From Desulfocapsa sp. (GTDB lineage Bacteria > Desulfobacterota > Desulfobulbia > Desulfobulbales > Desulfocapsaceae): a stretch of DNA of 59,986 bases. Position numbers and translations under genes: made by a program. The stretch is taken from assembly GCA_030145625.1 (NCBI GenBank), contig JAQYVF010000022.1, positions 1-59,986 of the forward strand, given 5' to 3'. This document shows positions 5,530 through 47,466 of this stretch, in pieces (within the stretch, counting starts at the first letter, position 1; every line of letters begins with the position of its first letter). Under the pieces are notes generated by a model. The model did not search any database and had not been told where the DNA came from. It saw nothing but the letters and a program-made list of their open reading frames with translations.

Positions 5530-8500
5530 GTGTTTAACTATCGCCTTCTCATCATTGTTTTTGTCCTGATCTTCGGGGCTGCCGCTTCAGGTATTCTTCG
5601 TCTCGACATCGACACCGACGTGGTTCGCTCTCTTCCCTCAGATCAAACCGTAATCAGCGACGCTCTGGAGATCTTCACCAACCATCCCATTCATGATCAA
5701 ATTGCAGTAGACATCACGCTGGATAGAGAAGATCAGGACATGCTGGTAGAATGCGGGAATTTTGTTGAACAACAACTTCGGGAAAGCGCTCTCTTTACAG
5801 AAGTAGGAACCAGCGAGATTGGCAAGCTCATCCCTGCTCTTGCCTTACATATTGTCAACAACCTGCCAATCATGTTCTCTCCGGAAGAGCTTCAAGAGCA
5901 GATTGCCCCTAGACTGGAAAAAGAATTTATCCAGCAGCGCCTGCAGAAACTGCTGCAGAAGCTAAGCGGTCTCGAAGGGATCGGCCAGTCCGAATTTATT
6001 GCAAAAGACCCTCTTGGCCTGATGGAACCGGTCATGGCAAAGATGGCAATGCTTGCTCCCACAGAAGGATCGAGGATGTACAGGGGCCATCTTCTCTCGG
6101 CAGACAACCGTCACCTCCTGGTAAGCGCACGGCCGATTACTGCCGGAACAAACACGGCTTCTGCTCGACAGATTTCCTTATTGCTGGCCGCAATTTCACA
6201 AAATCTTACAGACAAATATGGTTCTGAGGGAATCAAAGTCACCCTCACTCCGGTGGGCGCCTATCGGGCAGCGCTGGACAATGAACGTATCATTCGCCAT
6301 GACGTCCGCTTGGCCCTGTTGCTCTCAACAGCAGGCATTGCCCTGCTTCTGTTTTTTTCCTTTCCCAGACCTCTGCTCGGCCTCTTCTCGCTGCTGCCTG
6401 CACTTGCCGGGACTGCTGCCGCCCTGTTTGTCTTTTCTCTGTTTCATTCTTCCATCTCCATCATGGTCTTAGGCTTTGGCGGTGCCATTATTTCTATTAC
6501 CGTTGATCACGGCATTGCCTACCTCCTCTTTCTTGATCGTCCCAGAGAAACCACAGGCAAAGGGGCCTCCCGTGAAGTTCGAGCGGTGGGTATACTTGCT
6601 GTCCTCACCACAGGTGGTGCCTTTCTCATCCTCTGTCTTAGCGGTTTTCCCATCTTCGTGCAACTGGGTCAGTTTACGGCCTTGGGAGTCTTCCTTTCTT
6701 TTCTTTTTGTCCATTCCATCTTTCCCCGCATCACCCCTTCCATGCCCCCTTCCTCTAAACGACGTGCCCTCCCTTTACAAGGAATGGTAGACAAACTTTA
6801 CGGGACTGGCCGTATCGGAGCAGTTGCAGCAGCAATTCTGGCATGCACCCTGCTCTTTTTTGCCCATCCAAAATTCAATGTCAGCCTGGAAAGCATGAAT
6901 ACGGTAAGCACGGAGACCCTAGCTGCCGACAAACTCTTTTCTACGGTGTGGGGAAATATTGGTGATAAGGTTTTCCTCATGGTTACCGGCGATTCCATTA
7001 CTGAGCTCCAGAAACAAAATGATACGCTCCTGCAAAAGATAGAGAGCGACCAAGACGCCTCCATTATCAAATCCGCCTTTGTTCCCTCCATGATATTTCC
7101 GGGTGAACTCAGGAGCAGAGAAAATCTGACCGCTTGGCAGCAGTTCTGGGACGAAGAGAGGAGCGAGAAGCTGCATAAAGAACTGAAAGAAAGTGCTGTC
7201 TCTCTGGGCTTTGCAGCAAATGGTTTTGACTCCTTTCTGAACCAGCTGCAACCACCATTTCAAACCAATGTCTCCAGCCTCCCTTCCCACTATTACAACC
7301 TTATGGGGATATCGGAGAAAAATGACATATTGGTCCAATTCATCACCCTTTCTCCAGGACAAAACTATAACAGCCAATCCTTCTTTGATCAGTACAGCCA
7401 AGACGCCAAGATCTTTGACTCCCCTTACTTCTCTGAACAGCTGGCAAACATTCTGTTTACCACCTTTGCCACAATGCTTGCTATCATTGCCATCAGCGTT
7501 GCAATACTGCTGTTTTTCTTTTTCCTGAGCTGGCAGCTGACACTTATCACTCTGCTGCCTCCCCTCTTTTCCTATGTCTGCACCCTGGGAACCATGCAGT
7601 TGATTGGTCACCCATTAGATATTCCCGGTCTGATGCTCTCCATTGTCATCCTGGGCATGGGCATCGATTACTCCATATTCTTTGTCAGGGCCCACCAGCG
7701 ATACCGCAATCCCGATCACTCCTCCTTCAAACTCGTCCGCATGGCTGTCTTTATGGCAGCGATGTCCACTCTCATTGGCTTCGGCGTCCTCTGCTTTGCC
7801 GAGCATTCCCTGTTACGAAGCATAGGTGTCACATCATTGCTGGGAATCGGCTATTCCCTCCTCGGTGCCTTTCTCCTTCTGCCTCCTCTGCTCCAGGCTT
7901 TTTTCTCTGGGAAAAGACAGGCCCCTCTTACAGAACAATCCCTTGTTCAGCGTGTCATGGGCCGCTATCATCTCATGGAGGCCTATCCACGCATGTTTGC
8001 CCGTTTTAAGCTAAAATCGGACCCCATGTTTGGAGACCTTGCCACACTGCTTGCAAAATATACAGACAGTACCGAGACAATCCTCGATATCGGCTGCGGC
8101 TACGGGGTTCCCGGCTGCTGGTGCCTGGAATACTTTCCACAGTCAAAAATTATTGGTCTTGATCCGGACCCGGAACGAGTAAGAGTGGCAACGCTAGCCA
8201 TGGGAAAAAGAGGCGATATTGTGCAGGATATGGCCCCAAAGCTGCCTGCACTTTCCAAGCCGGCCGATCTTATACTGCTCCTTGACATGCTGCACTACCT
8301 GGATGACGAAACAATCACTACCCTGTTTACGAATTGTTTGCAGGCCCTTGCCCACGACGGCATACTGGTGATACGTTATGTAATCCGCCCAGATGCCCCG
8401 CCTTCCAAATCCTGGATGCTTGAACATTACAGAATCAAGTTTTCCGGTGGGACCCCCTGGTATCGTTCTTCCGAAAAGATGGCTGAACTCATGGCTGGGA

Positions 8501-39658: not shown

Positions 39659-40564
39659 TTACCCTTTTCCGCGAGTTTTGGTTCTTCCCGGCTGAGCATT
39701 TTTCTCTATAAATGCGATAACACTATCCGCCACATTCTTCCCAGTGGCTTTTTCAATGCCTTCCAGACCAGGTGAAGAATTCACTTCCATAACAACCGGA
39801 CCATGATTTGCACGCAATATATCCACCCCGGCTACATTCAGACCCATTATTTGGGCAGCGCGAACGGCTGTAGAGCGTTCTTCCGGCGTTATTTTTACTC
39901 CTTCAGCTTTTCCGCCCCGGTGGATATTGGAGCGAAAATCTCCTTCCTTGCCGGTGCGCATCATTGCTGCTACGACCTTGCCGCCAACAACAAAACAACG
40001 GATATCTTTGGCATCGGCCTCCTTAATAAATTCCTGGACCAGGATATTCTGTTTCAATCCCCGAAAGGCCTCAATAACACTCTCAGCAGCGTTATTGGTC
40101 TCAGCAAGGACAACACCAATCCCCTGAGTCCCTTCCAACAGTTTAATCACCAGTGGAGCGCCACCGGCAAGATCAATTAAATCCTGAGTGTACATGGTTG
40201 CATGGGAGAAACCTGTTACGGGCAGACCTATTCCCCTGCGAGCCAGAAGCTGAAGAGAACGAAGCTTATCTCGGGAACGGGAAATAGCCACAGATTCATT
40301 GACGGAATAGACTCCCATCATTTCAAACTGCCTGACAACAGCAGTTCCATAAAAAGTAATAGAGGCACCTATTCGTGGAATAATTGCACTATAGCCTTCC
40401 AGAGGTTCTCCCTTAAAATGGATTGAAGGCTTATGAGAAGTAATATTCATATAACAGCGCAACGGATCAACAACCAGCACCTCATGGCCTCGTTTTTCTG
40501 CACTATCAAGAAGTCTAGCGGTGGAATAAAGTTCTTTATTCCTGGATAAGATACAAATTTTCAT
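39659..40564 (-). CDS. rimK: RimK-type ATP-grasp glutamate ligase
   Basis: 301 residues from ATG 40564, with GGAAG seven bases upstream. It matches E. coli RimK along its length: [80 protein letters not shown] and [14 protein letters not shown]. RimK adds glutamates to the C-terminus of ribosomal protein S6 and can make poly-glutamate; the family also contains LysX/ArgX ligases that modify the carrier protein LysW. It is the second gene of an operon with the retropepsin-like gene (1-bp gap). LysW-like proteins are encoded divergently nearby, so its target here is open. Confidence 0.93.
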
Positions 40565-40565
40565 T

Positions 40566-41036
40566 TTATCTTCCTTCATTGTAAATTTTAGGAGATTTTC
40601 GTCCTGCTAAGTAAGAAGCAACAGGATCAACGCAAAATATTCCCGCCATGGCACTGCGCCCCAATAACATCCGAAACTGCATGGTATCTCTATCGGTCAA
40701 TGTAATTTCTACCCGGCTGCTAACATTGCCCAGGACAAGTGTTGTTTCAATGACATAACGCATTTCTTTATGGCCTCCGGAATCCATAACCATACGCTGA
40801 TCAACAATGGGTGCCTGGCACGTCAGGACAATAGCAGTCTGTTTCTGCAACGGATGAATCTTAAAACGAACTTTATTTATTCCTTCTTCCTGAAAAGGTT
40901 CAACTGCAAAGGCATGGAGGGCAGACGTTTTAGCCCCTGTATCCACCTTGGCCTTAATAGCCGGAATACCAATATCGGGAAGAGAAATCCATTCCCGCCA
41001 TCCCAGAATTTTTTTATCTCCCGTGTCTTCTGTCAC
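40566..41036 (-). CDS. RimK-associated retropepsin-like protease (Zn_protease/RimB-type family)
   Basis: 156 residues. The start is taken as GTG 41036 because AAAGGAG stands eight bases before it; a TTG at 41087 extends the frame without a ribosome site. The aspartyl-protease motif [13 protein letters not shown] is followed by [15 protein letters not shown], as in the family often annotated 'ATP-dependent zinc protease', which sits beside rimK in many genomes and is thought to cut RimK-made tails. It is the first gene of the rimK operon. Confidence 0.88.
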
Positions 41037-41561
41037 CTGTGTAACTCCTTTTGCCAACGAGCATATTACTCTTCTATAAAAATCCAACCACCATCATTTG
41101 GGGACGGAGTTTATAGACCCAATTCCTGAAACTGTCCACCTTTATTTTCAGTCGTGAATTCAAACATACAAGACAACTCTTATTTTCTACACCCCTTCTC
41201 CCTGCAGGGCATCCGACATTTAATCGAAAACAAGAAACAGGAAGAACAAGTTCCGACCACCACAACCACAAGAACATTCAGTTCCTACTATTTTTTATAT
41301 GTAATTCCGAGCCATAACAAACGACACATACATTTATAGCAATGATTAACAGCCCACAAAAAAAATAAGAGAACTCAAAGTTCCTTTTAGTCCAATACAT
41401 CTCCTGATCACACGAGACGAATCTCTTCAAAAAAACAACCATCACATCCCCTGACTACAAAACAAAAAACACCTATAACATCTTTTATTTTCAGGATATT
41501 TTACAAATACAGACTCTTTCCCTTCGCCTCTGCCTTCTCTTTTCTCAGTAAAATTTACAGA
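41037..41561. other. Divergent intergenic region between the rimK operon and the LysW-like operon
   Basis: AT-rich and without a convincing gene on either strand. It should contain the rimK-operon promoter, though none was pinned down. The sigma-54-type promoter for the rightward operon is annotated separately. Confidence 0.5.
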
Positions 41562-41578
41562 TTGGCATTTCTTTTGCT
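41562..41578 (+). promoter_or_regulatory. Sigma-54 (-24/-12) promoter of the LysW-like/MATCAP operon
   Basis: TTGGCATTTCTTTTGCT fits TGGCAC-N5-TTGC: GG at 41564-41565 and GC at 41576-41577 are exactly 12 bp apart, start to start. It lies about 100 bp before the first gene of the operon. Sigma-54 use agrees with the regulator types in the window; the activator is unknown. Confidence 0.65.
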
Positions 41579-41679
41579 CCTATATCGAAAGCAAAGCATT
41601 CAGGATAATAGAAGGTCAACCTTGGCCACGAGTTAACTATTCAATAGCCACATTCTACTCGTGGAGGATATAGGAGTTC

Positions 41680-41997
41680 ATGAAAATCAAAAGTGCAATG
41701 ATCAGCATACTGTTTCCGGTTATCGTTCTCTGCAACACGGTGTCACAGGGAGCAGCAATGGTTATTGAAAATGACACAATTAAAAAAGCACAGCAAAATC
41801 TGGAGGAAGAACCTCATGACCAGAAAAATCGGCAGCAGAGAGAATCCAAAACGGAAAACGAATATCAACAAACCTTCCCCTCAGCACCTGACGCGACAGA
41901 GAAGGATGAAGAAATAGAGATCGTGGGGGAGTTTTTTGGAGAAAGTTTTTTCGAAAGAGAACCATCTAAACAAATAGATTGGGCTGTCACAGAATAA
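41680..41997 (+). CDS. Small secreted acidic protein of unknown function
   Basis: 105 residues with a strong ribosome site (GGAGtt before ATG) and a signal peptide (SILFPVIVLCNTVSQGAA). The mature part is highly charged, Glu/Gln/Lys-rich, probably helical then disordered (KKAQQNLEEEPHDQKNRQQR), and has no cysteine. No family was recognised. It opens the putative sigma-54 operon containing the two LysW-like genes and the MATCAP-type peptidase. Confidence 0.6.
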   Translation: MKIKSAMISILFPVIVLCNTVSQGAAMVIENDTIKKAQQNLEEEPHDQKNRQQRESKTENEYQQTFPSAPDATEKDEEIEIVGEFFGESFFEREPSKQIDWAVTE

Positions 41998-42025
41998 CAA
42001 CAGCAATAAACAAGGATAAAAAATT

Positions 42026-42232
42026 ATGAAAACTCGCAAATGCCATTCATGTATGGGTCAAATAACAATTTCCCATAATGACGAGCCTGGTGATATAATT
42101 TTTTGCAAGGTCTGTGGGGGCGAATACGAACTGTACTCTACCAACCCAATACGACTTAGGCCTTTAATTTATTTTACTGAGCATGACCTTTACGATGGAC
42201 TTGAGTTCAACGAAGATTTCGATTCTTTCTGA
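42026..42232 (+). CDS. LysW-like small zinc-ribbon carrier protein 1
   Basis: 68 residues, with AAGGA nine bases before the ATG. Four cysteines (C6, C9, C27, C30) form a zinc ribbon. The spacing and surroundings resemble LysW, the amino-group carrier of lysine/arginine biosynthesis: CxxC, then EPGDIIFCKVCGGEYEL, then NPIRLRPL (LysW: DPLRLEP). LysW ends in EDWGE, with a terminal Glu modified by RimK-like ligases; this protein ends NEDFDSF, so the acceptor residue would differ. No lysine genes are near. It is followed by a paralogue. Confidence 0.75.
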   Translation: MKTRKCHSCMGQITISHNDEPGDIIFCKVCGGEYELYSTNPIRLRPLIYFTEHDLYDGLEFNEDFDSF

Positions 42233-42376
42233 CCCCTTACCCATCAAATGATTTTGAGCGGGATAGAAGATTGTTGAAAATTATCATTTCCCCTTACCTT
42301 CTTTTATCCCTACCATTTGTGAGATGCGGCATCTCAACACAATTGTCATCATACTGTTCAAAAAAAGGATATTATA

Positions 42377-42625
42377 ATGTTTGAGCAAACAAGAAGATCA
42401 GGAAGCGGAGGAAAACGAATCAGATCCTTTACCAACCAGTTTCGGAGTTGCAAACTCTGCGGAAGTGCCGATGGACTGGAAATTTCCAGTTACCACAGAA
42501 AGAATGACATTGTTTTCTGTCAGGTTTGTGGTGTAAAATATCTTTTACAGAGTACCCAGCCAATTAGACTCCACCTGCAGGATAGTGACACTGCACAAGA
42601 CTATTTCATAATGGCTGAGGATTGA
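42377..42625 (+). CDS. LysW-like small zinc-ribbon carrier protein 2
   Basis: 82 residues, with AAGGA nine bases before the ATG. The same pattern as the preceding gene follows a basic, Gly/Ser-rich 20-residue extension: C25, C28, C48, C51; NDIVFCQVCGVKYLLQSTQPIRL. The C-terminus is acidic and ends MAED. The duplication, with divergence outside the ribbon and PIRL core, suggests two carriers or substrates of one system. The gap between the two genes (about 145 bp) has no gene. Confidence 0.75.
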   Translation: MFEQTRRSGSGGKRIRSFTNQFRSCKLCGSADGLEISSYHRKNDIVFCQVCGVKYLLQSTQPIRLHLQDSDTAQDYFIMAED

Positions 42626-42725
42626 AAAAATCATTAAAGAATACCCTCCCCCCCTCAATTCTTGGTAAGTGAAACAAGAATTGAGGAACTGTTTTCTCTA
42701 TCTGTTACCCGTAAGGGTGTCGCAA

Positions 42726-44717
42726 ATGCAAACCTTATCTGAAAAGGAGATCCTTCTCCACATAAGACAACAAGAACCCTTTGCGGCAGTTATCGACACA
42801 GGTGCCTTCAGTATCAAAGTCGACCGTTATATCCCCGCAGTCTACACAGCAATTCACGCCGGCCATACTCTTCGCAAACAGTTCGAAGGGAGACTGTTGC
42901 TGGACCAAAGAAAAAGACAATATGAAGAGGACCCCTATACCGGTATAATGCTGGGCTCGTTCCCTATTGTTCTACAGGGCCTTGACTCTCGATACCTGTA
43001 TGACCTGAATCGTCCGCCCGAAGCCCCCCCCTACGAAAAAGCCCAGGGGAAAAAAGTTTGGCTCCCCCCCCTCACCGCCAGGGAACGAAAAGAAAACGTT
43101 TCCCGATACGACAGTTATTACAGAGTACTGCATGCCCTTCTCACAATTCTTGAAACGAAATTTTCCCGTTGCATCATTTATGACCTGCACTCCTATAACT
43201 ACCAGCGCATTACAACGGACACACCGCTGTTTAATGTCGGCACCCATTACATTGATCAAGAGACATATCAACCAGTGCTAGACCATCTGCAACGACGGCT
43301 CCTGGGAGCGGAATTTCCAAATATCACAAACAGAGCAGCCTGTGATGAAGTTTTCCCGGGCAAGGGTTATCAGGCCTCTTTCATTCACGAACATCATCCT
43401 GAAAGCCTTTGCATCCCCCTTGCCATCAAAAAAGTGTATATGGATGAGATCTCCGGAGTTGCTTACCCGCTTATCCTTGAAGCGGTTATCGAAAGCCTGA
43501 AACAGGCACTAAGTTACAACGCATCCTACTTCAGCAGAAGATTTTCCGGCAAAAGGATACAGCGTTCACTGTTCTTTGCCGAAGAGAGCAGCAAGATTAT
43601 CAGAAGAATAGATGCAGCACTCTATAAAGTTGCAAAAGGTGCTGACACATTACGCTATATCAATCCCATCAACCTAGCTCATGAACGTAAACTTTTTTTC
43701 GCCAAACATTGCAACTACACACCACAATTCTACTATAGACAGTTAAAGATTGATCCCTTTGTCTTTCGTGAACAAATATATGGCATTCCAGTGGACAATA
43801 TCCAGGATGTCAGCATACGTCAGCTCTACCGCAGCACTATTGATATGCTTGCTCAAAAAGTTGACTTGCTGACCACCATAGGTACTGAGCATTTTCTCTA
43901 CAACTCTCTAAGATTTCATGGAGAGCCAAGGGCGGTAGACATTCAGCTGGCCCGTTTTTTTATCGCGGCTCCCCCTATTGAAAATGAAGAAAAGCAGGAA
44001 TATCTCAGCGCCAGTGACTGTATCAATGCATTTCAGAAGGCAATAAACGACTATGGTTTTCACTGTCAGGTGGAACTGAGCAGCCGTATTGTGGCCAGGG
44101 CCATGGTCAGCAGTGCTCGACGCAAAGTTCTGATCAATCGCTCTGCTCATTTCACAGAAACGGAAATCCAGGCCCTGATCCACCATGAGCTGGGGATACA
44201 CATGACAACCACTATCAATGCCAACAAACAGGGACTGAAAATATTCAAACTTGGTCTGGCTGGCAACACGGAAACCCAGGAAGGCCTGGCTATTCTCAAT
44301 GAATTTTTATCCGGCAACCTAACCCTGAGCCGGATAAAAATGCTGGCCTATCGGGTCATGGCTGTCCATATGATGGTCCAGGACTATAGCTTCAGCAGGA
44401 CATTCAAGGCCCTGACCGATGATTTCGGTATGTCAAAAGAAGATTCCTTCAGCACATGCGTACGGGTGTATCGAGGAGGAGGATTCACCAAAGATTATCT
44501 CTACCTGACCGGACTCCGTAAGCTCTTGCAACTCTACCGTTCCGGTACGGATCTACAGCCCCTGCTTGTGGGCAAGACATCCATCACTTTTCTCGACACC
44601 CTAAAAGAGATGCTTGACCGAAAAGTTGTAACAGGCCCGACCCACCTGCCCCTGGCCTGGAAGATGAATGTTAAAAGTAATCCGATTCTAACCTACCTCC
44701 TGCGCTCCATATCCTAA
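42726..44717 (+). CDS. N-formylglutamate-amidohydrolase-like domain fused to MATCAP/DUF1704 carboxypeptidase (QEGLA protein)
   Basis: About 663 residues from ATG 42726 (AAGGG upstream); GTG 42669 is an alternative. The N-terminal half resembles N-formylglutamate amidohydrolases: IHAGHTLRKQFEG, DPYTGIMLGSFPIVLQGLDS, YLYDLNRPPE, IIYDLHSYNY. The C-terminal half is the DUF1704 family: HHELGIHM (HExxH, His487-His491) and QEGLA (Glu519) as the third zinc ligand region. That family includes eukaryotic MATCAP enzymes that remove C-terminal Tyr or Glu from tubulin. A carboxypeptidase that removes C-terminal residues from the operon's LysW-like proteins is a reasonable inference, but untested. Confidence 0.85.
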   Translation: MQTLSEKEILLHIRQQEPFAAVIDTGAFSIKVDRYIPAVYTAIHAGHTLRKQFEGRLLLDQRKRQYEEDPYTGIMLGSFPIVLQGLDSRYLYDLNRPPEAPPYEKAQGKKVWLPPLTARERKENVSRYDSYYRVLHALLTILETKFSRCIIYDLHSYNYQRITTDTPLFNVGTHYIDQETYQPVLDHLQRRLLGAEFPNITNRAACDEVFPGKGYQASFIHEHHPESLCIPLAIKKVYMDEISGVAYPLILEAVIESLKQALSYNASYFSRRFSGKRIQRSLFFAEESSKIIRRIDAALYKVAKGADTLRYINPINLAHERKLFFAKHCNYTPQFYYRQLKIDPFVFREQIYGIPVDNIQDVSIRQLYRSTIDMLAQKVDLLTTIGTEHFLYNSLRFHGEPRAVDIQLARFFIAAPPIENEEKQEYLSASDCINAFQKAINDYGFHCQVELSSRIVARAMVSSARRKVLINRSAHFTETEIQALIHHELGIHMTTTINANKQGLKIFKLGLAGNTETQEGLAILNEFLSGNLTLSRIKMLAYRVMAVHMMVQDYSFSRTFKALTDDFGMSKEDSFSTCVRVYRGGGFTKDYLYLTGLRKLLQLYRSGTDLQPLLVGKTSITFLDTLKEMLDRKVVTGPTHLPLAWKMNVKSNPILTYLLRSIS

Positions 44718-44787: not shown

Positions 44788-47139
44788 TCAGAACCTATCT
44801 GACTCATCTAGCTCGCTCTGCATTTCACCCTTGGCCTTAGTCTTCTTTTCTCCGGACAGGCCGTTTTTTATATGCACATCACGCTGGGGAAAGGGAATTT
44901 CCACCCCATGTGCACGAAAAGCCTGATCGATTGCGAAATGCATATCACTTCGCACATCAATGCGCCGATCAACATCCTTTAAGTGACATAACAGTTCAAA
45001 ATCCAAAGAAGACTCACCAAAGGCCTGAAAACGAACAACAGGATAAGGGGCGGTGCCGTTCACAATCACCTCCGGATGCGTATTTGCCACTTCGAGAAGA
45101 ATCTCTTTCACCAATGCCGTGTTACTGCCATAGGCGACTCCCACTGATACCCGGACCCTGCCACGGGTATCCTGAAGCATCATATTGGTCACCTGGCTGG
45201 AAATCAATTCCGAATTGGGGACAATGACGTCGGATCGATCAAAAGTTTGAATGATAGTTGATCGAACACTGATCTTTTTCACATACCCCTCAGTGGTTCC
45301 CACACTGATCCAATCCCCTCTTTTAATAGGACGTTCAAAGAGCAGAATAAGACCGGAAACAAGATTGTTGACTATATTCTGCATACCGAATCCGATGCCA
45401 ACGGACAGGGCACCTGCAACCATTGCCAGACCAGAGAAATCAATGCCCGCTGTACTGAGAGCAACAAGGATTGCTATACTGTAACCGATATAGCCAAGAA
45501 CCGTTGTGAAGGCATCCTGAACACTGGGCGCCATTTCGGATTCAGTCAACCAGGGTCGAATTATACTGTCCCTAACAACAGAAACAACAGTCCAACCAAA
45601 GGCAAAAATCAAGAACCCGATTCCCACTCGTGAAGGTACAATGGTCATCTTTCCAATACTGAAACCTTCCACCAACCAACCATAATAGGTTGACCTATAC
45701 ACTCTTGAAATACCCCATAACCGAAGGACACTATAGATAAAAGCAAAAACAAGTAAGAGTTTAAACAGACTGTTTATCCAGATGACCCCTCTCAAGACTT
45801 CAGTTTGTTTGACACCGGCTTTTTGACGAATATTCTGTTGCCAGGTATATTTCCCTCTTCCAAAACCACCTACCACCTCACTTATCAGATGCTTGCCAAT
45901 AATAAAAAATAAGGCGATAAACAAGGTACCTAGCGTCCCGATCAGGATATGCGTGGCAAGAGTCCGATAACCAGTGAGCTCGGCGAGTACCACACTGCCA
46001 AGGATTAAGATCAGGAAGATACGAACAATTCGCCTCATTGCCTGCAATTTGGAAAAACTGCAGGCCAGCCAGAATGCCCAGAGCAAGACTCCATACCAGA
46101 GCATTATAATCAGTGCACGAAGCAGATTAAAAGACATCTCCGGCAAAAGAGTTTTTAACGGGCTTGCAACAACGAACCACAGCAATCCGGAAAATAAAGC
46201 CAGCAAATGCAGTCGCCACAAACCTGATGCGGTGCCCCCCTCCCCCATGGCATCAGGTTGACCGGCCCCAACAAGAACAAGCCCATAGACCTTGCCGAAA
46301 ATTGACAAAAACAATACGATCAGCAAACTATCTAGAGCACACGGCAAATAAGACGGCGACTGCAGATCTGCCATAAAAAAATGTATCGAGAGGGATACCC
46401 CACCCAGCGCAGCAAGTAGCCGGAAGGTGCTTTTCTGTTGCCCGATTGTACGTAAGAAATCGAAGAAAAATCCTTCTTGTTTAATATTGCCAATGCGGTA
46501 ACTGAAAAGAACATCCATTCTACCACCAAAAAAATACCCCAATCCGGCCAGGAAAAATATGAGAACAAAATGCAACCGCGTCAAAGATGTAATCCCGCTT
46601 CCCATGATAAAAAAATTACCGGCTGTCAGCATCCATTCCACAGATCGTATTTCCGGCTGGTGAAGTATGTAAAGGATATCATTGCCACGGGCAAACAGGT
46701 CTCTGGTGAAGATCTGTTTTTTATTCTTTTTCAATTTCTGCTCAAGATCCGTTGCCTTGTAATTCAGAAGGCGGCATTGGGCTAGACGAACCTCGGCCAG
46801 ACTTTTCAGGGACACCAGACTGGCTCGTTCTTTGGCAATATCCTTTGGCTCACCACTCATTTTTTCGCCAAGTGCAGCAAAAGCCTTAGCGACCTGTTCC
46901 ATTTCCTGCTGCGATATGGATATGCAGTATTGCCCCTGTTTAAGATAGACCTGCACCTGCTGCATAAAAAGTTCTATCTGCGTTATCGAGAGGGTTTCCA
47001 GGTCGATCTGATTAATTTTATTAAGTTCTTGTTGAGCAGCAACAAAATCGTACGAATCCAAATCAGCAGAATTGGAGAAGGATGGATAGAACAGGAAAAA
47101 AACAGAGATAAAACCTATTAACAACGTGCCTAATTTCAT
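44788..47139 (-). CDS. Large MscS-family mechanosensitive channel (MscK-like)
   Basis: 783 residues from ATG 47139 (GGGGGTGG upstream); the frame extends to 47178. A signal peptide precedes a periplasmic coiled domain (about 25-155) and about ten hydrophobic helices. The MscS core follows: GLAMVAGALSVGIGFGMQNIVNNLVSGLILLFERPIKRGDWI (pore helix and beta domain) and VRVSVGVAYGSNTALVKEIL. The end, EIPFPQRDVHIK, is standard. It opens on membrane tension to release solutes during osmotic downshock. It converges with the MATCAP gene. Confidence 0.93.
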   Translation of the reverse strand: MKLGTLLIGFISVFFLFYPSFSNSADLDSYDFVAAQQELNKINQIDLETLSITQIELFMQQVQVYLKQGQYCISISQQEMEQVAKAFAALGEKMSGEPKDIAKERASLVSLKSLAEVRLAQCRLLNYKATDLEQKLKKNKKQIFTRDLFARGNDILYILHQPEIRSVEWMLTAGNFFIMGSGITSLTRLHFVLIFFLAGLGYFFGGRMDVLFSYRIGNIKQEGFFFDFLRTIGQQKSTFRLLAALGGVSLSIHFFMADLQSPSYLPCALDSLLIVLFLSIFGKVYGLVLVGAGQPDAMGEGGTASGLWRLHLLALFSGLLWFVVASPLKTLLPEMSFNLLRALIIMLWYGVLLWAFWLACSFSKLQAMRRIVRIFLILILGSVVLAELTGYRTLATHILIGTLGTLFIALFFIIGKHLISEVVGGFGRGKYTWQQNIRQKAGVKQTEVLRGVIWINSLFKLLLVFAFIYSVLRLWGISRVYRSTYYGWLVEGFSIGKMTIVPSRVGIGFLIFAFGWTVVSVVRDSIIRPWLTESEMAPSVQDAFTTVLGYIGYSIAILVALSTAGIDFSGLAMVAGALSVGIGFGMQNIVNNLVSGLILLFERPIKRGDWISVGTTEGYVKKISVRSTIIQTFDRSDVIVPNSELISSQVTNMMLQDTRGRVRVSVGVAYGSNTALVKEILLEVANTHPEVIVNGTAPYPVVRFQAFGESSLDFELLCHLKDVDRRIDVRSDMHFAIDQAFRAHGVEIPFPQRDVHIKNGLSGEKKTKAKGEMQSELDESDRF

Positions 47140-47466
47140 ACCACCCCCAACAACAAAAAACCCCATTGATTTATGCAAAAGTGCATTAATCCTTAATTAT
47201 ACCCCTATCAAAGAGATTCCTCAGCAGAAAACAATTCAGTTCTTGAGTAGAATCAAACAACCGGCAAAATATCCAAAAAAAACTGCCTCCAGTCTCTTTC
47301 ACATCTTTTCTCCCTCCCCCCCTTGCCCTCCACTGGCAATCCATGCTAACCTATTTACTTAACACAAAAACACAGGAATATACATAAGTACCATGCTAAG
47401 TCGTACTCGGTCCTGCCTACACCTTTTGGGATAACTGGAACATTTGCAAAAGCGCAAGAGAGCAAC

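What the first reader, a model, noticed from the sequence alone, without database searches (positions are those of the whole stretch)
39659..44717. Candidate carrier-protein/peptide-tagging system: RimK + retropepsin, facing two LysW-like proteins and a FGase-MATCAP peptidase
Seen: a RimK ligase and its retropepsin-like partner are divergent from an operon with two LysW-like zinc ribbons (CxxC...GD-IxFCxVCG...PIRL) and a protein joining an N-formylglutamate-amidohydrolase-like half to a DUF1704/MATCAP zinc carboxypeptidase. Known: RimK relatives (LysX, ArgX) attach amino acids to LysW's C-terminal Glu; MATCAPs remove C-terminal residues; no lysine or arginine genes are present. Inference: the ligase charges or tails the small ribbons and the peptidases trim or release the product. 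Two carriers with different C-termini (DFDSF, MAED) suggest different cargo or a modification or signalling role rather than lysine synthesis.
Basis: partly seen in the sequence, partly recalled or inferred. Interest (0 to 1): 0.88.

Follow-up and report, generated by a model that had tools for sequence, protein, structure and literature searches.

The report
Possible protein-tail editing gene cluster
A bacterium carries, side by side, a glutamate-adding enzyme, a matching protease, a relative of the enzyme that trims our microtubule protein tubulin, and two small proteins with acidic tails, which suggests, without proving it, that bacteria edit protein tails somewhat as our cells edit tubulin.

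Summary
In detail: rimK and a rimB-like gene face two LysW-like zinc-ribbon genes (LW1, LW2) and a gene for an FGase-MATCAP fusion with an intact HExxxH...E motif. LW1 is above the Pfam LysW cut-off, LW2 below it; both look selected (dN/dS about 0.32 and 0.17). The "LysW carrier" reading is weak: the Glu tail is missing and no LysX-like hit was seen. The exact cluster recurs in one relative, whose rimB looks frameshifted; in another, LW2 is a remnant. The wider link is better: among 20 genomes of the genus, LysW-like proteins and the fusion occur in the same 4. In one of these a GshB-like ATP-grasp, the fusion, an arginase-family gene, LW3 (ending EEDDY) and polyamine genes lie in one row. In the Photobacterium family a GshB-like gene of this kind follows maoP (another small acidic-tailed protein) in 55 of 55 genomes that have it. 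Published RNA-seq of a Photobacterium shows RimK, a GshB/QEGLA pair and polyamine genes rising at low salt. I favour a tail-editing module tied to low-salt and polyamine physiology. The substrate step is inferred; a link between terminal residue and operon did not survive a phylogenetic test.

The parts
39659..40579 (-). RimK, S6-type poly-alpha-L-glutamate ligase (ATP-grasp)
   Evidence: NCBIfam PRK10446 464 bits over cut-off 331; PF08443 and PF18030; 91% identical to the RimK of G009
40566..41087 (-). RimB-like retropepsin, overlapping the start of rimK
   Evidence: PF05618 128.6 bits; NF052261 128 bits, below its cut-off 200; split over two frames in the JAHIUA relative
41680..41997 (+). 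ORF105, hydrophobic N-terminus and acidic C-terminal half; fast evolving
   Evidence: no family above cut-off; homologue in the JAHIUA relative, 49.5% identity, dN 0.354, dS 0.853
42026..42232 (+). LW1, LysW-like zinc ribbon, 68 aa, tail ...GLEFNEDFDSF
   Evidence: PF21344 42.1 bits over cut-off 27; dN 0.207, dS 0.64
42377..42625 (+). LW2, divergent LysW-like zinc ribbon, 82 aa, ends MAED (MAEY in the JAHIUA relative)
   Evidence: PF21344 13 bits, below cut-off; matches LW1 by phmmer; dN 0.107, dS 0.639
42669..44717 (+). FGase-MATCAP fusion: FGase-like amidohydrolase half plus MATCAP/DUF1704 carboxypeptidase half (H506-E507-x3-H511, E538); the start shared with relatives is 42726
   Evidence: PF05013 64.8 and PF08014 349 bits; aligned to human MATCAP 7z5g with HExxxH and TxEGLA matched; these residues invariant in 6 sequences
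44788..47178 (-). MscS/MscK-type mechanosensitive channel, convergent neighbour (context, not claimed as part of the module)
   Evidence: PF00924 83.6 bits; same neighbour in L017 and L018

Best explanation
This is a protein-tail editing module. RimK adds alpha-linked glutamates to acidic C-terminal tails, the RimB-like retropepsin cuts them back, and the FGase-MATCAP fusion works as a two-domain metallo-hydrolase that removes residues from such tails. Besides ribosomal protein S6, the proposed substrates are the LysW-like proteins (LW1 and LW2 here; LW3 elsewhere in the genome), whose zinc ribbon would be the recognition body and whose short acidic tail, often ending in Tyr or Phe, would be the edited part. 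In other bacteria the same fusion is served by a GshB-like ATP-grasp and sits beside another small acidic-tailed protein, MaoP; this genome shows no such ATP-grasp, so RimK may fill the place. Physiology: low-salt response coupled to polyamine synthesis. Shown: genes, families, active-site motifs, selection, neighbourhoods, co-occurrence in the genus. Inferred: that the tails are substrates, the order of reactions, the role of the FGase half, the physiology in this organism.
For: Families and motifs. LW family and full-length fusion in the same 4 of 20 genomes of the genus. In G009 a GshB-like ATP-grasp, the fusion, an arginase-family gene (ORFs overlapping by a few bases), LW3 and genes that I read as arginine decarboxylase and carboxynorspermidine synthase and decarboxylase lie in one row, while its LW1/LW2-like pair lies beside an MscS gene and a RimK 91% identical to the window's. 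In the family of the Photobacterium genome G442 a DUF413/MaoP match ends 14-168 bases upstream of the GshB-like match in 55 of 55 genomes that have the latter, and the FGase half follows in the 30 of 30 loci that were read downstream. The last 15 residues of the 62 DUF413 copies read from these 55 genomes are 51% Asp/Glu. Eukaryotic MATCAP/TMCP removes C-terminal Tyr and shortens polyglutamate (PMC10499314, passages incl. abstract). RimB removes RimK-added Glu (PMC11957791, passages incl. abstract). RNA-seq table, Photobacterium damselae at 1% versus 3% NaCl: RimK 52-fold, GshB RS17020 38-fold, RS17025 (QEGLA, the MATCAP name) 27.5-fold, SpeB 11-fold, carboxynorspermidine synthase 5.4-fold and decarboxylase 4.5-fold (PMC10308900, passages).
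Against: No biochemical evidence that any LW or MaoP tail is modified. Acidic tails are also common where the enzymes are absent: MaoP in 59 operon-negative genomes averages 45% Asp/Glu over the last 15 residues, and E. coli MaoP ends EDYTDSDD. RimK plus RimB alone is a complete S6 system, so their presence may be independent. LW2 is a remnant at this spot in G002 and rimB looks frameshifted in G007, so parts are dispensable. In the 395-genome sample of the phylum 25 of 26 genomes with an LW-profile hit have no MATCAP hit. The link of a terminal hydrophobic residue with the operon does not survive phylogeny: 3 supported independent contrasts only, sign test p 1. 8 of the 16 genus members without LW and fusion are under 90% complete, and the four with both may be one clade.
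Confidence: 0.36

Rival explanations
1. Two units that happen to be neighbours: an ordinary RimK-RimB system for ribosomal S6, and an FGase-MATCAP enzyme that makes or breaks a small gamma-glutamyl or polyamine amide, with the LysW-like proteins as zinc-binding regulators or scaffolds.
For: RimK passes the S6-ligase model with a wide margin. In G009 and in the Photobacterium family the fusion pairs with a GshB-type ATP-grasp (PF02951 and PF02955), a small-peptide ligase family. Polyamine genes follow it in G009, and LW3 sits at polyamine genes in 4 of 4 fusion-bearing species of the genus. Parts of the window cluster decay separately in relatives.
Against: LW1/LW2-like genes lie near RimK in 3 of 4 species. 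The MATCAP half keeps the motif of an enzyme known to act on protein tails. RimK and a GshB/QEGLA pair rise together in Photobacterium.
Confidence: 0.34
2. The small proteins are unrelated housekeeping zinc ribbons (for example RNA- or ribosome-associated) and the clustering is chance.
For: An LW-family profile hits 26 of 395 genomes of the phylum at E 0.001, 25 of them without a MATCAP hit.
Against: Exact co-occurrence in 4 of 20 genomes of the genus, Fisher 2e-4 without correction for kinship; LW genes linked to the fusion in three species (LW1/LW2 in the window and G007, LW3 in G009).
Confidence: 0.18
3. The LysW-like proteins are amino-group carriers for a metabolite of the polyamine branch: RimK or another ATP-grasp charges the tail, the cargo is modified, and the FGase or MATCAP half releases it.
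For: LW1 is in the LysW globular family; LW3 lies between an arginase-family gene and a gene read as arginine decarboxylase in G009.
Against: The C-terminal Glu is missing in LW1, LW2 and LW3, while three LysW-type proteins of the phylum end EDWGE. No LysX-like hit was seen in the genome. None of the 10 ORFs profiled around the cluster is of the LysZ, LysY, LysJ or LysK kind; such genes were not sought genome-wide.
Confidence: 0.12

Closest known systems
RimK-RimB (RimABK) ribosomal S6 polyglutamylation
   Same: RimK equivalog and retropepsin-like partner, overlapping genes
   Different: Faces LysW-like genes and a MATCAP fusion; the RimB-like protein is below the RimB equivalog cut-off
Eukaryotic tubulin tail cycle (TTL/TTLL ligases, MATCAP/TMCP and CCP peptidases)
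   Same: ATP-grasp ligase plus a MATCAP-family peptidase with the same HExxxH...E motif; 10 of 16 LW-family proteins of the fusion-bearing species end in Tyr or Phe
   Different: No tubulin seen here (not searched); substrates unproven; the ligase is of the RimK or GshB type, not TTL
LysW/ArgW amino-group carriers
   Same: Zinc-ribbon body, PF21344 above cut-off for LW1; profile match to 5k2m and 3wwl
   Different: No C-terminal EDWGE; no LysX-like hit; no lysine or arginine synthesis gene among the 10 ORFs profiled
FGase / MATCAP (QEGLA) / GshB-like ATP-grasp operons
   Same: Same FGase and MATCAP domains; 45-48% identity to the Photobacterium and Pseudoteredinibacter fusions
   Different: No GshB-like gene of that kind detected in this genome; RimK/RimB-like and LysW-like genes instead
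MaoP (DUF413), Ori macrodomain protein
   Same: Small protein with acidic tail, directly upstream of the GshB-like gene in 55 of 55 genomes of the Photobacterium family that have it
   Different: Another Pfam family (PF04219); not found in the window region

Membership tests
LysW/ArgW amino-group carrier | LysW zinc-ribbon domain (PF21344 above cut-off 27) | tested here: met
   LW1 42.1 bits; LW2 13 bits, not met; LW3 24.3 bits, not met
LysW/ArgW amino-group carrier | NCBIfam LysW models above cut-off | tested here: not met
   LW1 TIGR01206 27.3 bits, cut-off 53.2; NF041070 30.9, cut-off 75
LysW/ArgW amino-group carrier | C-terminal Glu (EDWGE tail) | tested here: not met
   LW1 ends DSF, LW2 AED, LW3 DEY; three LysW-type proteins of the phylum end EDWGE
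LysW/ArgW amino-group carrier | LysX/ArgX ligase in the genome | tested here: not met
   PF08443 search of the own genome: 6 hits, the 5 besides RimK at 51 bits or less; the window RimK scores 133 bits to LysX, cut-off 275.6
RimK S6 glutamate ligase | PRK10446 equivalog above cut-off | tested here: met
   464 bits, cut-off 331
RimK S6 glutamate ligase | S6 with a Glu-ending tail in the same genome | not tested
RimB retropepsin | NF052261 above cut-off | tested here: not met
   128 bits, cut-off 200; the wider PF05618 is met
MATCAP/QEGLA peptidase | PF08014 and TIGR02421 above cut-off | tested here: met
   349 bits (cut-off 27) and 375.5 bits (cut-off 338.65)
MATCAP/QEGLA peptidase | HExxxH plus distal Glu | tested here: met
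   H506, E507, H511 and E538, invariant in 6 rows, aligned with human MATCAP
MATCAP/QEGLA peptidase | Removal of C-terminal residues from a protein tail | not testable with these tools
   needs an enzyme assay
GshB-like / FGase-MATCAP operon | GshB-like ATP-grasp beside the fusion | tested here: not met
   absent beside it in the window; besides RimK the best own-genome PF08443 hit scores 18.6 bits to that family, although PF08443 detects the family at 55 and 74 bits
Tubulin-like tail cycle | Tail residue removed and re-added in vivo | not testable with these tools
   mass spectrometry needed

The most novel reading that the evidence does not exclude
Bacteria run a tubulin-like tail cycle: MATCAP removes the encoded C-terminal Tyr/Phe of a small acidic-tailed protein (LW3 ...EEDEY, LW2 of the sister species ...MAEY, MaoP ...DLDY), exposing an acidic end that RimK or a GshB-like ligase then extends, with RimB and the FGase half trimming. 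Two unrelated protein families, LysW-like ribbons and MaoP, serve as the tail bearers in different phyla, and the state is set by low salt and polyamines.
Probability: 0.14. Interest if true: 0.88.

Novelty: new variant of a known kind. Interest (0 to 1): 0.6.

Why it matters
As far as I recall, the MATCAP family has a demonstrated job only in eukaryotes, where it trims tubulin. My searches of the held open-access library (listings only, several cut to the best 20-30) showed no paper on what its bacterial relatives do together with LysW or MaoP. Two candidate substrate families encoded beside the enzymes make that question testable with purified proteins and intact-mass spectrometry. If right, tail editing by ligase and carboxypeptidase is older and wider than tubulin, and MaoP, a chromosome-organising protein, could be regulated by it in marine bacteria.

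Tried and rejected
LysW-type lysine or arginine carrier: rejected as membership because the C-terminal Glu and a LysX-like hit are missing.

Tail-terminal Tyr/Phe as a mark of MATCAP genomes, LW family: 10 of 16 ORFs of the four fusion-bearing species of the genus end Y/F, against 1 of 13 in MATCAP-free or FGase-only genomes (tallied by hand; Fisher 0.006, not corrected for kinship). The list has 48 rows; I cut it at about E 1e-9 after seeing it. Not counted: 17 rows weaker than that, four of which (ends EDF or ENF) end in F without MATCAP; one 61-residue fragment ending Y in G002 (E 0.009); and the one LW of G029 (ends N, fusion present).

The same for MaoP: of 55 operon-linked copies 39 end aromatic, 8 aliphatic, 7 acidic and 1 Asn, so 47 of 55 hydrophobic; of 59 operon-negative genomes 4 do (3 Val, 1 Tyr). 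These 59 are of 76 operon-negative genomes with a DUF413 hit (best hit taken where there were several; 19 further genomes had no hit). Of the 8 exceptions 5 (G847, G878, G895, G906, G954; ATP-grasp 69-71% identical to the query) look like a second operon group with acid- or Asn-ending tails; the others are G825, G834 and G945. With phylogeny only 3 supported independent contrasts remain, sign test p 1, so I do not claim this link. In the family of the Pseudoteredinibacter genome 8 of 9 loci had DUF413 upstream and 6 of those 8 end in L or W.

MaoP beside the fusion is not universal: none was seen at L136, L137 or L138 (at L136 only 400 bases upstream are held), nor in the window's genus. The output was cut in the middle, so I did not see all 20 fetched loci.

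The AlphaFold model of the fusion was poor (mean pLDDT 46), so no fold search was run. The MscS of G009 is only 38% identical over 218 residues to the window's and is not counted as the same gene. One automatic ORF choice suggested a broken arginase-family gene near LW3 in the own genome; tblastn showed one unbroken match, 83% identical over 312 residues.


Full report
Observation. Profiles name RimK (464 bits to the S6-ligase model), a PF05618 retropepsin below the RimB equivalog cut-off, LW1 in the LysW zinc-ribbon family, LW2 only a distant match, and a 682-residue FGase-MATCAP fusion. LW1 and LW2 match each other by phmmer, and a profile of six LW sequences finds the LysW structures 5k2m and 3wwl. 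The MATCAP half aligns with human MATCAP (7z5g) across HExxxH and the distal Glu, and these residues are invariant in six sequences. Against the JAHIUA relative LW1 and LW2 have dN/dS of about 0.32 and 0.17, so they look like genes under selection.

Conservation. The whole cluster recurs in JAHIUA (G007), where rimB is split over two frames, possibly an assembly error. In JAHJNL (G002) RimK, the RimB-like gene, the fusion and MscS are there, but LW2 is a remnant with an internal stop and no LW1 match was reported at the spot; LW1, LW2 and LW3 homologues lie on another contig beside polyamine genes. In G009 the fusion follows a GshB-like ATP-grasp and precedes an arginase-family gene, LW3, and genes that I read as arginine decarboxylase, carboxynorspermidine synthase and decarboxylase (names from reading the sequences, not from profiles, except PF00491 for the arginase family); its LW1/LW2-like pair lies about 30 kb away next to an MscS gene and a RimK 91% identical to the window's. 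In 20 genomes of the genus the full-length fusion is in 4, an FGase-only match in 3 more, and LW-family proteins are in the same 4 as the fusion. The four may be one clade, I did not build a genus tree, and 8 of the other 16 genomes are under 90% complete, so the Fisher value of 2e-4 overstates the evidence. Outside the genus the link loosens: in a sample of 395 genomes of the phylum PF08014 is in 2, while the LW profile hits 26, of which only the own genome also has MATCAP. In the other family members sampled, LW hits without the fusion are in G020, G031 and G032, both together in G029, and LW with an FGase-only match in G026.

The ligase. The fusion's ATP-grasp partner in G009 and Photobacterium is GshB-like (PF02951 and PF02955). 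The own genome has six PF08443 hits; apart from RimK none resembles that partner, though PF08443 detects it at 55 and 74 bits. So in this genome RimK is the nearest candidate partner. This is inference from absence in a 229-contig assembly rated 100% complete. G002 and G007 were not searched for it.

Wider family. In a sample of 369 genomes of the class of the Photobacterium genome G442 (taken to be Gammaproteobacteria; names are not shown) 54 have MATCAP. In a sample of 150 genomes of its family (taken to be Vibrionaceae) 55 have the GshB-like gene, and in all 55 a DUF413/MaoP match ends 14-168 bases upstream (the gap counts any unmatched end of the tail). In the 30 loci that I read downstream the FGase half follows directly; these loci are cut before the end of the fusion. 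MaoP organises the E. coli Ori macrodomain (PMC5023128, passages). E. coli MaoP has an acidic tail but no such operon beside it. Thus the same enzyme pair has, as neighbours in two lineages, two unrelated small proteins with acidic tails. At L136, L137 and L138 no such neighbour was seen.

Physiology. In Photobacterium damselae at 1% versus 3% NaCl, RimK rises 52-fold, GshB (RS17020) 38-fold, the QEGLA protein (RS17025) 27.5-fold, SpeB 11-fold and the carboxynorspermidine synthase and decarboxylase 5.4- and 4.5-fold (PMC10308900, passages with the table). I did not check by sequence that these locus tags are the operon described here; their neighbouring numbers fit. MaoP is not named in the passages I saw. 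These are the same kinds of gene that cluster physically in the window's genus. Secreted relatives of RimB in Pseudomonas are needed for survival under hypoosmotic stress (PMC12239564, passages incl. abstract).

Mechanism. Known: RimK adds Glu to a tail and RimB removes it (PMC11957791, passages incl. abstract); eukaryotic MATCAP/TMCP removes C-terminal Tyr and shortens polyglutamate (PMC10499314, passages incl. abstract). That FGase is fold-related to M14 carboxypeptidases is recalled, not tested. Inferred: the LW tails are substrates. I give this 0.36. The main rival, that RimK/RimB serve S6 only and the fusion handles a small amide, I give 0.34.

Tail ends. LW3 ends EEDEY or EEDDY in five copies from four species; LW1-type tails end F, Y, F and I, and LW2-type tails D, Y, Y and G, across the four species. 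This resembles the alpha-tubulin tail (recalled) and is the basis of the boldest reading, but the link between terminal residue and enzyme did not survive phylogeny in the MaoP set, and F-ending LysW-like proteins occur without MATCAP.

Literature. Searches of the held open-access library listed no paper that treats bacterial DUF1704/MATCAP together with LysW or MaoP; searches list only the best part of their finds. Searches were too broad to tell. A 2009 amidoligase survey that I recall as relevant is not held, so prior description of parts of these neighbourhoods cannot be excluded.

Verdict. Real genes in a loosely conserved cluster; carrier hypothesis weak; tail-editing hypothesis reasonable and directly testable.

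Noticed in passing
L043 (own genome contig 45) 8392-14314; L102; L101; L024: A third LysW-like protein, LW3 (60 aa, ends EEDEY or EEDDY), lies at polyamine-type genes in all four fusion-bearing species; in three of them (L043, L101, L102) an ~85-residue ORF (no Pfam match for the L101 copy) and a response-regulator gene (sigma-54 type by Pfam for the L101 copy) lie beside it.
   Followed up: partly
L100 8271-12669 and L101 7519-11816: LysW-like paralogues occur in small clusters (five in G009, four in G002), some with long Asp/Tyr-rich tails.
   Followed up: partly
L177-L206, L246-L257: maoP (DUF413) directly precedes a GshB-like ATP-grasp and FGase-MATCAP in the Photobacterium family; in a second operon group the linked DUF413 is one of two or three copies in several genomes (G847, G878, G906, G954).
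   Followed up: yes
L018 about 7682-7813: Remnant of LW2 between rimB and the fusion gene in the JAHJNL relative, with an internal stop.
   Followed up: yes
L061, L064, L068, L073: A separate small CPxC-type protein family ending EDF or ENF in other genomes of the phylum, without a MATCAP hit.
   Followed up: no
window 41680-41997: Fast-evolving small ORF with hydrophobic N-terminus and an EFFGESFF motif shared with the JAHIUA relative, first in the LW row; unexplained.
   Followed up: no
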